25,934 nt of DNA from IMG/VR virus record IMGVR_UViG_3300037189_002571, positions 1-25,934 of that record. One strand, given 5' to 3'. A model generated the notes under the pieces. That model was not told the DNA's origin and searched no databases. It was given only the letters and a program-made list of their open reading frames with translations. This document shows positions 3,624 through 7,874 of the stretch, in pieces (the first letter of the stretch is position 1; every line of letters begins with the position of its first letter). The DNA is from a virus. Position numbers and translations under genes: made by a program.

Positions 3624-4479
3624 TGTTCATTTCCTTCTGATATTGACTACACCATTGGTTCACTCCGCAGTAGTTACCCGTACATCTTTTAGGTTCTCCT
3701 TTCCTAGTCTCAACGTAACCTTTCTCCTTCTCTGCCAGTTCGTTTGCTTCCTCAATGGATTTAAACAACTTGATGGCAGTCTTTCTTCCTTCGCGCTTGA
3801 CTGCATAGACAGTCTCAGACATCCAGCGTTCTTCGTCTGTACATGGTTGGAGTTCTTCTTGGAAGTCCCGTGCCACCTTAGCTTGCTGGTGCATACGCAG
3901 ACGCTCCCGGATGAATGTCTCTGCCGTGAATGAATCCCATATCGGGATGTCCACGACGGTAATGGGAGACTCTGGATAGCCTTCCTTCGTTTCGTATTTG
4001 TTGTAGTCTCGAAGCATGGCGCATATCTTCAAGCCCACCACACGCTCCCGCTTCACCGTTTCAACGAGCCACTTGTATAGGTTAAGTTGCTCTACCCATT
4101 CACGCTTTTCTTTCATTACAGACCACACCGATGTGAACTTGTAGTCCCACAGAATGATCCCGGCAGGTGTCTTCTCTTGGATGTCAATCGCACCGCTGAT
4201 CACAGTGCCTTCCAGTTGAGCAAACAGGCGTTCCTCTTTGATGAAGTTCTTGGTCTTTACTTCCTCAAACCTAGCGTGAAGCGCGGTACCTAAGAATGCG
4301 TACAGCATATCGCTGATGTCCTGCTCCATCAGGTCATCGTACTGTTCGCGCAACCTTTGTACCTTTGGAGGACTGAGCAGCCCTGTTACACTGTACTCAG
4401 ATGCACCCTTACTATAGTGATCCTTGCTCATCATCTCGACTAGAGGTCTAGGCAAGTCGTATTTGTTGGTAATCTTCAT
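3610..4479 (-). CDS. PD-(D/E)XK exonuclease (Cas4/RecB-like)
   Basis: 289 residues. Motifs are GTALH (residues about 64-68), SGAIDIQE (Asp about 99), ILWDYKFTS (Asp112, Lys114) and QLNLYKWL (about 131-138), the His/Asp/Asp-x-Lys/Gln-Tyr order of RecB-family nucleases. A C-terminal RCTGNYCGVNQWC cluster resembles the cysteines holding an Fe-S cluster in Cas4/AddB-type enzymes. It probably resects phage DNA ends for the annealing protein next to it. ATG 4479 is used because AAAGG lies 6 bases upstream; an in-frame ATG at 4485 has no such spacing. Confidence 0.85.
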   Translation of the reverse strand: MKITNKYDLPRPLVEMMSKDHYSKGASEYSVTGLLSPPKVQRLREQYDDLMEQDISDMLYAFLGTALHARFEEVKTKNFIKEERLFAQLEGTVISGAIDIQEKTPAGIILWDYKFTSVWSVMKEKREWVEQLNLYKWLVETVKRERVVGLKICAMLRDYNKYETKEGYPESPITVVDIPIWDSFTAETFIRERLRMHQQAKVARDFQEELQPCTDEERWMSETVYAVKREGRKTAIKLFKSIEEANELAEKEKGYVETRKGEPKRCTGNYCGVNQWCSQYQKEMNNESN

Positions 4480-4502
4480 CGTCATCCTTTCTATGAAACG
4501 CA

Positions 4503-4531
4503 ATGATAGTGATGTTAGCACCGAAATGCAA
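4503..4531 (-). promoter_or_regulatory. Leftward sigma70-like promoter for the recombination operon
   Basis: On the minus strand TTGCAT (4531-4526) and TATCAT (4508-4503) are separated by 17 bases, placing the start of RNA near 4496, just before the exonuclease start at 4479. It overlaps the start codon of the divergent resolvase gene, so the two directions may interfere. Confidence 0.5.
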
Positions 4532-4918
4532 GTGATATCAAAAATTATTTTTGGTGAGCCTGCAAGCAAAGCCAACTCAAGGAGGGTGGTTCGCTTCGGT
4601 GGGATGTCGAGACTGATCAAGTCCCAGAAAGCACTGACCTACTCAGAGTTGTTTAAACAACAATGGGAGCCTGAGCCTGTCTTGTTGACCGGTGACCTTC
4701 AAATCACCATGCACATTCACTACGCATCACGAAGACCGGACTTGGACGAGAGCCTGATCCTTGATCTCATGCAAGGCATCGCTTATGTAAACGACAGGCA
4801 GGTGAAGGAGCGTCATGTGTACTGGCACCTTGACCCTGACAATCCGAGGTCGGAGATTAGAATCCAGCAGATCGCAGAAGTAGCGCCCAAAAAGAAGCCC
4901 CGAACCAGTCGGGGCTAA
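4526..4918 (+). CDS. rusA: RusA-like Holliday-junction resolvase
   Basis: 130 residues. MQVISKIIFGEPASKANSRRVV is the usual first strand and basic turn of RusA, and RRPDLDESLILDLMQGIAYVNDRQV (about 73-97) contains the conserved aspartates (RPDxD, then NDRQ in place of the usual DDxQ). RusA dimers cut four-way junctions and suit the neighbouring recombination genes. The start is chosen by homology; longer in-frame starts at 4424 and 4493 would run into the divergent exonuclease gene and lack the fold. The C-terminus (PKKKPRTSRG) is basic and its last codons form a hairpin (see terminator). Confidence 0.8.
   Translation: MQVISKIIFGEPASKANSRRVVRFGGMSRLIKSQKALTYSELFKQQWEPEPVLLTGDLQITMHIHYASRRPDLDESLILDLMQGIAYVNDRQVKERHVYWHLDPDNPRSEIRIQQIAEVAPKKKPRTSRG
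4890..4916 (-). terminator. Leftward-oriented terminator overlapping the resolvase stop
   Basis: Perfect 8-bp stem AGCCCCGA (4896-4903) with TCGGGGCT (4909-4916) and a 5-base loop. Read on the minus strand it is followed by TTCTTTTT; read on the plus strand there is no T-run. It would therefore stop leftward transcription entering from the right. Confidence 0.6.
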
Positions 4919-5156: not shown

Positions 5157-5184
5157 TTGCGAACAGTAGAAATTCTGTTATAGT
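5157..5184 (+). promoter_or_regulatory. Sigma70-like promoter for the small RNA
   Basis: TTGCGA (5157-5162) and TATAGT (5179-5184) with a 16-base spacer. The predicted RNA start is near 5191, right after the upstream gene ends, and about 25 bases before the structured terminator hairpin. Confidence 0.6.
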
Positions 5185-5190
5185 AAAGCT

Positions 5191-5293
5191 GTTGCTGTAG
5201 CACGCAATAGTCTGAAGCCAGTTACACATGCATCTTGGCCTCTGGGGATTCTCAGAGGGTGCTATCCAAGGTGCAGTTGTAACTGGCTTTTTT
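5191..5293 (+). ncRNA. Candidate small RNA with nested stems and intrinsic terminator
   Basis: Three nested helices: AAGCCAGTTACA (5215-5226) with 5278-5289, 12 bp perfect; TGCATCTTGG (5229-5238) with CCAAGGTGCA (5266-5275), 10 bp with one G-U; CCTCTG (5239-5244) with CAGAGG (5253-5258) around an 8-base loop, with a 7-base bulge (5259-5265). A run of six T (5288-5293) follows the outer stem, so the whole is a rho-independent terminator carrying an elaborate loop. A promoter lies just upstream. A short reading frame across it has no ribosome site and no coding look. It does not match a class I can name. Confidence 0.65.
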
Positions 5294-5344
5294 CATTCCT
5301 GCTATGACAACCGTACTCCACACGACAGCAAGAGGTCATCCTGC

Positions 5345-5523
5345 CTGCGTGGAAGAATAGGGATACACGGTAAGCGTCAAGGCGCGGAGCAACTACTCCC
5401 AACAATCCGTGCGGCTGGTCGAATCTGCAAGCCGAGGGGTCAGGAAACTGACATGCAGATGCCCTAACGGGCGGTGAAGACTCATCCTCCCAACCCTATG
5501 TTTACATGGGGAAGGGGGGTCTT
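5345..5523 (+). ncRNA. Candidate structured RNA with multi-helix junction
   Basis: Helices seen by eye: closing stem CTGCGTG (5345-5351) with CATGCAG (5452-5458); CACGG (5366-5370) with CCGTG (5407-5411), holding inner hairpin GGAG/CTCC (5386-5399); directly abutting CGGCT (5412-5416) with AGCCG (5430-5434); TCAG-GAAA-CTGA (5440-5451), a GNRA tetraloop; GCCC/GGGC (5461-5472); and a long hairpin CCTCCC-AA-CCCTATG-TTTA-CATGGGG-AA-GGGGGG (5486-5519) with a symmetric internal loop. The abutting helices, GNRA loop and lack of a credible gene support a folded RNA or long structured leader of the replication genes downstream. It is not a tRNA, RNase P RNA or tmRNA. Confidence 0.5.
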
Positions 5524-5544
5524 TGGGTGAAATTTATTAGAACA

Positions 5545-5558
5545 GCCCCGGCAGGGGC
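5545..5558 (+). other. GC hairpin in the leader of the replication genes
   Basis: GCCCC (5545-5549) pairs with GGGGC (5554-5558) around GGCA. No T-run follows, so it is not an intrinsic terminator. It sits 42 bases before the winged-helix start and covers an upstream ATG at 5561 that lacks its own ribosome site. Confidence 0.4.
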
Positions 5559-5599: not shown

Positions 5600-5923
5600 A
5601 TGTCAATTCAATCAGTATTTGAAAAGTTTTTTGGAACACCTGCTAAAGAGATGGTCAGAACAACTGACCCGGACACTAGCGTAGAGGCAGCTCATTCGGT
5701 AGACTCAACACAGCTTGAGGCAATGGTCTACGAGATCATTGCAAAGTACCCTGAAGGTTGTACCTCTGACGAGGTGATGAAGCATTTCCCTAATCACGGT
5801 GTTCAAACGATCTCACCGCGATTTGCTCCGTTGATGCGTAAGGGTTTTATCTATGACACTGGTGAACGCCGTAAGGCATCATCAGGCAGATCACAACGAG
5901 TGATGAAGGTGGTGAAAAAATGA
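5600..5923 (+). CDS. Winged-helix DNA-binding protein
   Basis: 107 residues. After a 30-residue lead (MSIQSVFEKFFGTPAKEMV), TDPDTSVEAAHSV is followed by helix-turn-helix and wing: AMVYEIIAKYP / TSDEVMKHFP / ISPRFAPLMRKGFIYDTGERR. Small winged-helix proteins with a DTS-x-EAA lead are common in phage early regions and are probably transcription or replication regulators. ATG 5600 is used because GGAG lies 7 bases upstream; an ATG at 5561 has none. The stop overlaps the next ATG (ATGA), forming an operon with the HNH-like and primase-helicase genes. Confidence 0.7.
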   Translation: MSIQSVFEKFFGTPAKEMVRTTDPDTSVEAAHSVDSTQLEAMVYEIIAKYPEGCTSDEVMKHFPNHGVQTISPRFAPLMRKGFIYDTGERRKASSGRSQRVMKVVKK

Positions 5924-6171
5924 CGCGAGACTACAAACAAGAGTATGCCAACTACGATGGCACACCTGCGGTCAAGAAGAAGAGAGCGCAGCGCAACAAA
6001 GCGCGGCGCATCATGGAGAGAGAAGGGGCAGTCCACAAAGGTGATGGTAAGGATGTAGACCATAAGACCCCTCTCAGCAAGGGTGGAACTACCGTGCGGG
6101 GCAACCTTGCGGTCAAGTCTGCCAGTAGTAATCGATCCTACAAAAGAAACTCTGATGGCTCAATGAAATGA
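5920..6171 (+). CDS. Small HNH/His-Me finger phage protein
   Basis: 83 residues. A basic helical N-terminus (YKQEYANYDGTPAVKKKRAQ) is followed by DGKDVDHKTPLSKGG and GNLAVKSASSNRSY. DH, then N and N, match a minimal HNH core (Asp-His, Asn, then Asn in place of the last His). This compact family is common beside phage replication genes. Nuclease activity is likely but the role is unknown. It overlaps both neighbours by ATGA. Confidence 0.75.
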   Translation: MTRDYKQEYANYDGTPAVKKKRAQRNKARRIMEREGAVHKGDGKDVDHKTPLSKGGTTVRGNLAVKSASSNRSYKRNSDGSMK

Positions 6172-7874
6172 ACCATGAGTTCATCGAGCAGTTTCACTTC
6201 GGTGAGACTGCAAGGGTAGCCTGTCCCTTTTGCTCACAAGACAGGAAAAACAAAAGAAGCAAGGACATGGTGCTTACCCGCAAGTCTGACGGGGCAGTTG
6301 TTTACACCTGTCATCATTGTTCAGCAACAGGATCAGTACAACCGGAGAAACGAATGCAAGCGGCTCATAAGTTAGAAGCAGTTCCAAGCCCCGAGATTGT
6401 TCAGAACAAGCTACAAGACCATCACTATGACTGGTTGAAGAGTCGGGGGATCAGTAAAACGACGGCAGACAAGATGAAGCTATTCAGTTCTGCCAAGTAT
6501 TTCAACAAACTCGGGGCAGAGAAAGATGCCATAGGCTTCCCGTACTACCGCAACGGGGCGTTAGTCGCAGCGAAGTACCGCAGCTTCCCAGACAAAGCGT
6601 TTACACAAGATGCTGGCGGCGCACATGATTTCTTTGGAATCGATCTGGTAGAAAAAGGAAAGCCCATCATCGTCGTTGAGGGTGAGATAGATTGCCTGAC
6701 ATTGATAGAGGCAGGCATAGAGAACGTGGTGTCAGTGCCATCAGGCGCTCCGGTGAAAGTGGCAGATGGAAAAGTTCTGCCATCAGAGGACAAGAAGTTT
6801 TCGTTTGTATGGAACGCAGTCGAGGTTCTTGATGCTGCACCTTACATCATTCTTGCAACAGACCAAGATGTTCCCGGCCAAGCATTGGCTGAAGAATTAG
6901 CAAGGCGCATAGGAAAAGAGAAGTGCCGCCTCGCCAAGTTCAAAGAAAAAGATTTGAATGAGGTGTTCAACGACCCGTCACGGACAGACGACCCAGCACG
7001 GAGAATACAAGATATTCTAGATGCGGCCATGCCGTACCCGGTCGCTGGTCTTTCGGATGCCGCGTCCTACCAAGATCGTTTAAACGACCTGTATGCAAAG
7101 GGAACCGGCAAAGGATTCAGCACCGGTTACACCTCGGTCGATCAGATTTACACCGTCGCGCCCAGTCAGTTGACGGTGGTCACGGGTTACCCGAGTTCAG
7201 GCAAAAGCAATTTCGTGGATCAGCTAATGGTCAACCTCGCCCGAGACCATGATTGGAAGTTCGCCGTCTGTTCGTTTGAGAATCAGCCCGAGATTCACAT
7301 CTCCCGGCTCATGGAAATGTTTACACAAAAGCGATTCTTTGACGGCGTAAATCGCATGACTGAGGCAGAAAAAGAAAAAGCATTCCGCTGGGTCAATGAT
7401 CATTTCCTTTTCATTGATACCAACGGGGAGGAACCCTCAACCCTTGATTCCATCCTCGCTAGGGCGAAGGTAGCCATCAAGCGCATTGGTGTGCGCGGTT
7501 TAGTGATTGACCCGTATAACTACATCGAACTGAAGAGAGAAAACAACACCGAGACCGAGGCCATCAGCAACATGCTGACCAAGGTACAACAGTTTGTGAA
7601 GGCCCATGAGTTGCATTGCTGGTTCATCGCTCACCCGTCCAAGATCAATCGGTCAGGGGTAGAACAGCCCCGTCCAGATGGAATGTCCATCAGTGGCTCT
7701 ATGGCATGGTGGGCGAAAACAGACTGCGGTATCACCGTCCATCGCGGAGAGCAGAACAGCGTCGAGATAGCCGTCTGGAAGTGTCGATACAGGTGGGTAG
7801 GGACTCAGGGAGAGACGACCCTGCTCTACCATAAGATCGCCGGGACGTATTCAGAGCAGTTGGACAATTTTTAA
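6168..7874 (+). CDS. Primase-helicase, T7 gp4-like
   Basis: 568 residues. It has a zinc ribbon CPFC...CHHC (Cys19, 22, 48, 51), a TOPRIM domain (IIVVEGEID at 167-175; ATDQD at 230-234), and a RecA-type hexameric helicase with Walker A GYPSSGKS (340-347), CSFEN (368-372), Walker B GLVIDPYN (444-451) and the later WFIAHPSK. Order and length match T7 gp4 and its bacterial counterpart Twinkle-like proteins: it unwinds the fork and makes primers. No DNA polymerase is in the window, so that gene must lie outside or be supplied by the host. It overlaps the upstream gene by ATGA and contains four copies of the GTTTAMAC motif. Confidence 0.93.
   Translation: MNHEFIEQFHFGETARVACPFCSQDRKNKRSKDMVLTRKSDGAVVYTCHHCSATGSVQPEKRMQAAHKLEAVPSPEIVQNKLQDHHYDWLKSRGISKTTADKMKLFSSAKYFNKLGAEKDAIGFPYYRNGALVAAKYRSFPDKAFTQDAGGAHDFFGIDLVEKGKPIIVVEGEIDCLTLIEAGIENVVSVPSGAPVKVADGKVLPSEDKKFSFVWNAVEVLDAAPYIILATDQDVPGQALAEELARRIGKEKCRLAKFKEKDLNEVFNDPSRTDDPARRIQDILDAAMPYPVAGLSDAASYQDRLNDLYAKGTGKGFSTGYTSVDQIYTVAPSQLTVVTGYPSSGKSNFVDQLMVNLARDHDWKFAVCSFENQPEIHISRLMEMFTQKRFFDGVNRMTEAEKEKAFRWVNDHFLFIDTNGEEPSTLDSILARAKVAIKRIGVRGLVIDPYNYIELKRENNTETEAISNMLTKVQQFVKAHELHCWFIAHPSKINRSGVEQPRPDGMSISGSMAWWAKTDCGITVHRGEQNSVEIAVWKCRYRWVGTQGETTLLYHKIAGTYSEQLDNF

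What the first reader, a model, noticed from the sequence alone, without database searches (positions are those of the whole stretch)
5345..5523. Possible new structured RNA beside the small RNA
In a phage that otherwise packs genes end to end, about 450 bases lack a credible gene. The segment folds by eye into a closing 7-bp helix around three or four helices, two of them abutting with no spacer (5411/5412) and one capped by a GAAA tetraloop, then a GCCC/GGGC hairpin and a long GC-rich hairpin with a symmetric AA/AA internal loop. The loop of that last hairpin is the TTTA core of a GTTTACA motif. It does not look like a tRNA, tmRNA, RNase P RNA, group I intron or any riboswitch I can name.
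Basis: partly seen in the sequence, partly recalled or inferred. Interest (0 to 1): 0.8.

Follow-up and report, generated by a model that had tools for sequence, protein, structure and literature searches.

The report
New phage RNA copying its flank
Uncultured phages carry a previously unlisted, about 225-letter folded RNA with three knots, whose inner 6-11 letters always repeat the letters just past its own 3' end, as if the RNA were built to recognise its own stretch of DNA; what it does is still to be tested.

Summary
Window 5311-5532 (+) encodes a structured RNA that matches no Rfam family and no protein. I found 121 distinct full-length copies in uncultured phage contigs. On 63 of them a 12-helix model with three pseudoknots pairs in 95.6% of cells, and 32 of 51 pairs show changes on both sides (383 double-changed cells against 99 in shuffles). 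Its GAAA hairpin, the abutting helices at 5411/5412, the GCCC/GGGC hairpin and the long hairpin are right.

The RNA sits just after a sigma-70 promoter and a second structured RNA with a terminator. In 59 of 59 relatives that can be checked, this slot holds one of several alternative RNAs; one alternative is Rfam's unexplained Betaproteobacteria-1 RNA.

The surprise is near the 3' end. A segment X before the last hairpin is identical to X', the DNA directly after the RNA. X = X' holds even when the letters change completely (GGTGAAA, GGAGGAA, GATGGCATA, GGACGATCC, CAAGGAGCCTC), and the other slot RNAs checked show it too.

My best mechanism, unproven, is that X pairs with the template strand at X' and nucleates an R-loop, perhaps priming replication. 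IscB omegaRNA was tested and rejected.

The parts
5157..5184 (+). sigma-70-type promoter: TTGCGA (5157-5162), 16-nt spacer, extended -10 TG-T-TATAGT (5176-5184)
   Evidence: read from sequence; relatives have TTGACA-n-TATAAT-like sites at the same place
5191..5293 (+). RNA1: hairpin A 5191-5208, whose loop TAGCAC 5198-5203 can pair with GTGCTA 5259-5264 inside hairpin B; terminator-like stem 5216-5225/5279-5288 with T-run 5288-5293
   Evidence: loop complementarity in 119 RNA1 copies: own 7.66 nt vs swapped 5.12 +- 0.12; sequence
5311..5532 (+). RNA2 alpha: the structured RNA of this finding
   Evidence: 63-sequence alignment A1, pair counts, 121 distinct full-length members
5312..5324 (+). 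P1 hairpin 5312-5314/5322-5324; its loop 5317-5320 forms PK1 with 5350-5353
   Evidence: UA to GC at 6-14; AU to GC (14 sequences) and UA to CG at PK1
5333..5346 (+). P2 hairpin 5333-5336/5343-5346; its loop 5338-5342 forms PK2 with 5360-5364
   Evidence: 3 of 4 P2 pairs and 3 of 5 PK2 pairs with double changes
5366..5411 (+). P3 5366-5370/5407-5411 enclosing P3a 5374-5376/5381-5383 and P3b 5386-5389/5396-5399
   Evidence: P3 100% paired, 4 of 5 pairs with double changes
5412..5434 (+). P4 hairpin 5412-5415/5431-5434; abuts P3; its loop 5423-5429 forms PK3 with 5454-5460
   Evidence: P4 100% paired, 3 of 4 double changes; PK3 95.9% paired, 5 of 7 double changes
5438..5452 (+). P5 hairpin with GAAA loop, variable in relatives
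   Evidence: 83% paired, 2 of 3 counted pairs with double changes
5461..5472 (+). P6 hairpin GCCC-TAAC-GGGC
   Evidence: 4 of 4 pairs with double changes
5473..5478 (+). X, internal copy: GGTGAA
   Evidence: identical to X'; covaries with X' in relatives
5486..5519 (+). P7 long hairpin with conserved G-rich 3' strand GGGGAAGGGGGG
   Evidence: 91.9% paired, mostly C-G/U-G one-sided changes
5526..5531 (+). X', identical to X: GGTGAA, at the 3' edge of conservation
   Evidence: flank after X' differs between members; X = X' kept for unrelated letters
5545..5558 (+). hairpin GCCCC/GGGGC after the RNA, in most alpha members but replaced in some
   Evidence: alignment

Best explanation
This is a new family of phage non-coding RNA (RNA2 alpha). 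It is one of several alternative RNAs that fill the same slot behind a strong host promoter and a terminator-bearing RNA1. Shown: conserved RNA folding with three pseudoknots, the exchangeable slot, no coding capacity, and identity of internal segment X with the sequence X' directly after the RNA. Inferred: transcription reads through RNA1; the pseudoknotted body and the last hairpin hold X single-stranded close to the DNA just transcribed. X, being identical to X' in the RNA strand, pairs with the template DNA strand at X' and nucleates a stable R-loop at the RNA's own 3' edge. The most likely use is to prime or open DNA replication in cis, in the manner of ColE1 RNA II, with X/X' as the changeable specificity element.
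For: Fold: 95.6% of cells paired, 32/51 pairs and 383 cells with double changes vs 98.9 +- 7.8 shuffled and 34-52 when slid. X = X': longest shared run 7.22 own vs 5.85 +- 0.07 swapped in 118 alpha RNAs, with unrelated types GGTGAAA, GGTTGAAA, GGAGGAA, GATGGCATA, GGACGATCC, CAAGGAGCCTC. The same layout is in beta and gamma RNAs: CTCCG-X ... CACCA-X'. X has no complement elsewhere in the transcript (own equals swapped), so its only partner in cis is the template strand. Within X, differences of the kind G in X / A in X', which keep a G-T wobble with the template, number 9 against 1 of the reverse by my count of genuine pairs. One RNA1 copy per genome in 12 of 12 records; slot filled in 59 of 59 relatives. 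In G004 and G014 the cumulative GC-skew minimum is 0.3-0.8 kb from the RNA.
Against: No transcript, R-loop or origin has been measured. GC skew is confounded by divergent transcription and shows no such minimum in the other genomes. In other phage lineages the locus lies among structural genes, e.g. L201 and L150. A terminator lies between promoter and RNA2. The wobble asymmetry was noticed after the fact, rests on few pairs, and two C/T differences go the wrong way.
Confidence: 0.33

Rival explanations
1. Trans-acting phage RNA: after transcription RNA2 works as a free molecule that binds a host or phage protein (counter-defence or host takeover). X and X' are twin single-stranded sites for one ligand that differs between phages.
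For: Elaborate pseudoknotted fold; strong promoter; locus found in replication, early and structural regions of different lineages, as expected if position does not matter; exchangeable families in one slot.
Against: Does not by itself explain why X' sits exactly at the RNA's 3' edge and equals X for arbitrary letters. Presence in 59 of 59 relatives fits an optional counter-defence gene poorly.
Confidence: 0.27
2. RNA-guided DNA recognition: X is a 6-11 nt guide that directs an unidentified protein to X'-like DNA, for homing of the RNA cassette or against rival phages.
For: X is identical to adjacent DNA (would pair with one strand), hypervariable and at a fixed register. Phage-encoded RNA guides are known (vrRNA, PMC13142463).
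Against: No effector gene was found; IscB/HEARO was excluded. X' travels with the cassette, so it is not simply an insertion target. Single copy and universal presence do not look like a mobile element.
Confidence: 0.17
3. Cis-acting transcription control: RNA1 plus RNA2 form an attenuator or antiterminator at the head of the downstream operon.
For: Promoter, terminator-like RNA1, then RNA2 (median 16 nt after the T-run, 140 of 154 members).
Against: Downstream genes differ widely between relatives; in L004 and L057 an ORF separates RNA1 from the slot RNA; X = X' is unexplained.
Confidence: 0.15
4. IscB omegaRNA (HEARO) without its nuclease.
For: Only a first impression of similar sequence motifs.
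Against: RF02033 gives no hit in 24 phage records at E up to 10. Six genuine HEAROs score 95-154 bits, but the phage RNA profile finds nothing in them.
Confidence: 0.01

Closest known systems
Betaproteobacteria-1 RNA (Rfam RF02932), no function found here
   Same: Occupies the same slot in close relatives of this phage (11 of 59; 71-104 bits) and has the same X - hairpin - CACCA - X' 3' end
   Different: Alpha does not match its model; sequence and helices differ; the Rfam model stops before the X/X' part
ColE1 RNA II primer (own knowledge)
   Same: Structured RNA made from a host promoter, with an internal segment identical to a segment near its 3' end and so complementary to the template there
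   Different: Primer function not shown here; no antisense RNA I looked for; different fold; preceded by a terminator
GOLLD and ROOL phage RNAs (PMC12286853)
   Same: Large pseudoknotted phage RNAs of unknown function; some slot RNAs carry a tRNA-like insert, as GOLLD can
   Different: Alpha is about 225 nt, has no Rfam match to either, and has the X/X' feature
VIPR vrRNA (PMC13142463)
   Same: Phage-encoded RNA with a hypervariable DNA-matching part
   Different: No GGY/NN repeats and no Vipr gene seen; one contiguous X copied from the flank
HEARO / IscB omegaRNA (RF02033)
   Same: Structured, pseudoknotted RNA of similar size
   Different: Fails the covariance model and lacks IscB

Membership tests
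Betaproteobacteria-1 RNA RF02932 | Match to covariance model above 49.4 bits | tested here: not met
   No gathering-level match in the window or alpha loci; true members in the same slot score 71-104 bits
Betaproteobacteria-1 RNA RF02932 | Same genomic slot (used here as a sign of equivalent role, not a defining feature) | tested here: met
   alpha 38, RF02932-type 11, beta 7, alpha-5'-chimera 2, one locus with hits to both, of 59
HEARO / IscB omegaRNA RF02033 | Match to covariance model | tested here: not met
   0 of 24 records at E up to 10; reciprocal profile search empty
HEARO / IscB omegaRNA RF02033 | IscB-type ORF next to the RNA | tested here: not met
   No IscB or RRXRR match in the ten window ORFs scanned
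ColE1 RNA II-like primer | Internal RNA segment identical to a segment at the 3' edge | tested here: met
   beta and gamma
ColE1 RNA II-like primer | Persistent R-loop used as replication primer | not testable with these tools
   GC skew only suggestive and inconsistent
ColE1 RNA II-like primer | Antisense RNA I control | not tested
   no search for antisense promoters made
GOLLD / ROOL | Match to Rfam models | tested here: not met
   no match
tRNA / tmRNA | ARAGORN detection | tested here: not met
IS110 bridge RNA | Adjacent IS110-type recombinase | tested here: inconclusive
   none among the ORFs scanned with Pfam; not searched genome-wide
VIPR vrRNA | 9-16 YNNGG tandem repeats | tested here: not met
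   not present in sequence 5309-5535; definition from PMC13142463

The most novel reading that the evidence does not exclude
A previously unknown class of phage RNAs that carry, at a fixed place in a pseudoknotted scaffold, a changeable 6-11 nt guide copied from the DNA directly after their own 3' end, and use it to seize that DNA strand (R-loop nucleation or RNA-guided recognition). The class has many mutually exclusive families that replace each other in one essential phage locus.
Probability: 0.4. Interest if true: 0.92.

Novelty: new variant of a known kind. Interest (0 to 1): 0.78.

Why it matters
It adds a well-supported RNA family with three pseudoknots, found in more than 120 uncultured phage contigs, to a class in which only one member (RF02932) was catalogued, and it gives that orphan Rfam family a context and a testable feature. 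An RNA that keeps an exact copy of its own downstream DNA, whatever the letters, points to RNA-DNA recognition in cis or to a guide. Either would be a new phage strategy and possibly a small programmable RNA device.

Tried and rejected
1) IscB omegaRNA/HEARO, suggested by a remembered resemblance: tested and rejected. 3) Gene-specific leader or riboswitch: downstream genes differ. 4) Hidden protein: no conserved frame. 5) Chance hits of the G-rich pattern in Plesiocystis and Actinomadura are not members. 6) X/X' as target-site duplication or simple flank target: X/X' change together across a family that shares one layout, and X' travels with the cassette. 7) X pairing elsewhere in the transcript: no excess. 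8) A first long-repeat test between alpha RNA and a 100-nt flank was negative because X is only 6-8 nt; the anchored test was positive. 9) Replication origin by GC skew: suggestive in two genomes, not general. 10) Cultured phages and plasmids: no alpha; a related slot RNA is in one uncultured record, MW202484.1, with a short weak match in MW202753.1. 11) Papers: none found for RF02932.

Full report
What is there. The window is part of an uncultured phage (G000, 25,934 bases, IMG/VR record). Between a RusA-like gene (4424-4918, Pfam RusA) and a Toprim/DnaB primase-helicase (6168-7874) lies about 450 bases without a credible gene. Reading downstream: a promoter TTGCGA-16-TATAGT with extended -10 (5157-5184); a first structured RNA (RNA1, 5191-5293) ending in a terminator-like stem and T-run; and 18 bases later the RNA of this finding (RNA2, 5311-5532).

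Relatives. A scan with the primase-helicase gave 80 related phage loci. The region is conserved at 70-80% in more than 40 of them. In all I hold 157 contigs with a near-complete alpha RNA, 121 distinct. No reading frame is open in more than 33 of 157, so no protein is conserved there. No cultured phage and no plasmid in the searched collections has it.

Structure. On 63 distinct sequences (A1) I wrote a structure by hand from compensatory changes and had it counted: 51 pairs, 12 helices, 95.6% of cells paired against 31-44% when strands are slid by 1-3 columns; 32 pairs with changes on both sides; 383 double-changed cells against 98.9 +- 7.8 in shuffles. Because the structure was derived from these same sequences, the percentage paired is partly built in; the double changes spread over all twelve helices are the weighty part. 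Three pseudoknots stand out. PK1: the P1 loop CUCC(A/G) pairs with (U/C)GGA (14 double changes; CCCCA/UGGG in L005 and L006). PK2: the P2 loop pairs with the strand before P3, including C-G to G-C. PK3: the P4 loop pairs with 5454-5460, where UCUGCA/UGCAGA becomes AUCAUC/GAUGAU and other sets. The conserved G-U pairs (28-37, 36-54, 206-233) say that the + strand RNA is what folds. Folding energy alone would not have convinced.

The slot. In 59 relatives that span both rusA and the primase, the slot always holds an RNA: alpha in 38, an RF02932-type RNA in 11, beta in 7, a chimera with only alpha's 5' domain in 2, and one locus with hits to both alpha and the RF02932-type profile (Rfam hits in L004, L030, L054, L057, L071, L077; also L014, L127, L214). 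In L004 and L057 an ORF separates RNA1 from the RF02932-type RNA. Other lineages put further, mutually unrelated RNAs behind the same RNA1, about 38 of them with only alpha's 5' domain. RNA1 is itself a covarying structure: its first loop is complementary to part of its second hairpin (7.66 nt own, 5.12 +- 0.12 swapped). The locus is single-copy in the 12 genomes tested. It lies between a scaffold-like and a capsid-like gene in L201 and after the large terminase in L150 (gene calls by my reading of the sequences and by tblastn), so it is not tied to one gene neighbourhood.

The X = X' rule. In every slot family I looked at closely, a short segment X precedes the last hairpin and recurs as X' directly after the RNA. 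In beta and RF02932-type RNAs the frame is CUCC(G/A)-X ... CACCA-X', with X of AAGGGGAAA, AAAGGCAAG, AAGGGAATA, AAGGACAC, TCCAGCATTGA and others. In alpha it is P6-X-P7-UCUUU(G)-X'. Most alpha have GGTGAAA or GGGTGAA, but GGTTGAAA, GGGTGGAA, GGAGGAA, GGTGCAAC, GATGGCATA, CCTGGA, GGACGATCC and CAAGGAGCCTC occur, each in both places. Own pairs share 7.22 nt, swapped pairs 5.85 +- 0.07; in the 63-sequence set 7.29 against 6.50, with a maximum of 6.71 in 300 swaps. The conserved RNA ends at X': after it the sequence differs even between close alpha RNAs. In the window X is GGTGAA 5473-5478 and X' is GGTGAA 5526-5531.

How it may work. Same-strand identity means that X cannot pair with X' but can pair with the strand opposite X'. 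No other part of the transcript is complementary to X beyond chance. The simplest partner is the template DNA at X'. Where X and X' differ, I count 9 cases of G in X against A in X' (a G-T wobble to the template is kept) and 1 of the reverse; two C/T differences go the other way. This is a small, after-the-fact count, and some listed pairs are false matches that I left out by eye. Together with single copy, universal presence and exchangeability, this leads me to a cis R-loop, used most likely for replication, as with ColE1 RNA II (own knowledge of that system). GC-skew minima 0.3-0.8 kb from the RNA in G004 and G014 fit, but genes also diverge there and other genomes do not show it. I therefore give the mechanism only about one chance in three, while the existence of the RNA family and of the X = X' rule I hold at well over 0.95.

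What it is not. Not HEARO/omegaRNA: the model finds nothing in 24 records, whereas six real examples upstream of plasmid IscB genes score 95-154 bits and are not found by the phage RNA profile. Not a member of RF02932, GOLLD, ROOL, tRNA or tmRNA by model. It may well work like RF02932, whose place it takes.

Noticed in passing
window 5191-5293 and upstream of most slot RNAs: RNA1: about 100-nt RNA with strong promoter, covarying loop-to-hairpin pseudoknot and terminator; in more than 120 viral contigs.
   Followed up: partly
L029, L033, L038, L043, L048, L055, L063 between RNA1 and RNA2; also L013, L094, L054, L077 upstream of the promoter: A third RNA-like module of about 85-110 nt with a long closing helix, GGGTTAGCGCC and ACACTGCTTTATGTG motifs; no Rfam match in the loci scanned.
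   Followed up: no
L071, L077, L079 (also L054, L056), about 100-250 bases after rusA: A further structured-looking element (GTAGAGATTGGTGGG ... CAGTCTCTAC or GGGGATTG ... CAATCCCC) before the third module: these phages seem to carry a row of structured RNAs.
   Followed up: no
L087, L102, L103, L104: About 90-nt tRNA-like insert inside hairpin P3a of RNA2 (GATGGCGTAGCTTAATTTGAAGAGC ... CGTCATC), not called by ARAGORN.
   Followed up: no
window, 26 sites on both strands; e.g. L029, L077: GTTTACA occurs 26 times against 2.5 expected (0 of 100 shuffles). Relatives instead hold very many GTTTAAAC palindromes (about 19-21 sites in 13.7 kb of L029 and L077). A dispersed octamer of unknown role.
   Followed up: partly
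window 5920-6171; 94 of the first loci: Small 83-aa ORF with an HNH-like motif (VDHKTPLSKGG...NL...N) directly before the primase-helicase, conserved in 94 loci; no Pfam hit above threshold.
   Followed up: no
L066 4240-4340, L069: Chimeric slot RNA: alpha's 5' domain joined to an unrelated 3' part, behind a different terminator RNA.
   Followed up: partly
L004, L031, L045, L057 next to RNA1 or the slot RNA: ORF (TEFEVQAYLWHELR..., looks like a PD-(D/E)XK or VRR-NUC type nuclease by eye) inserted next to the RNA slot.
   Followed up: no
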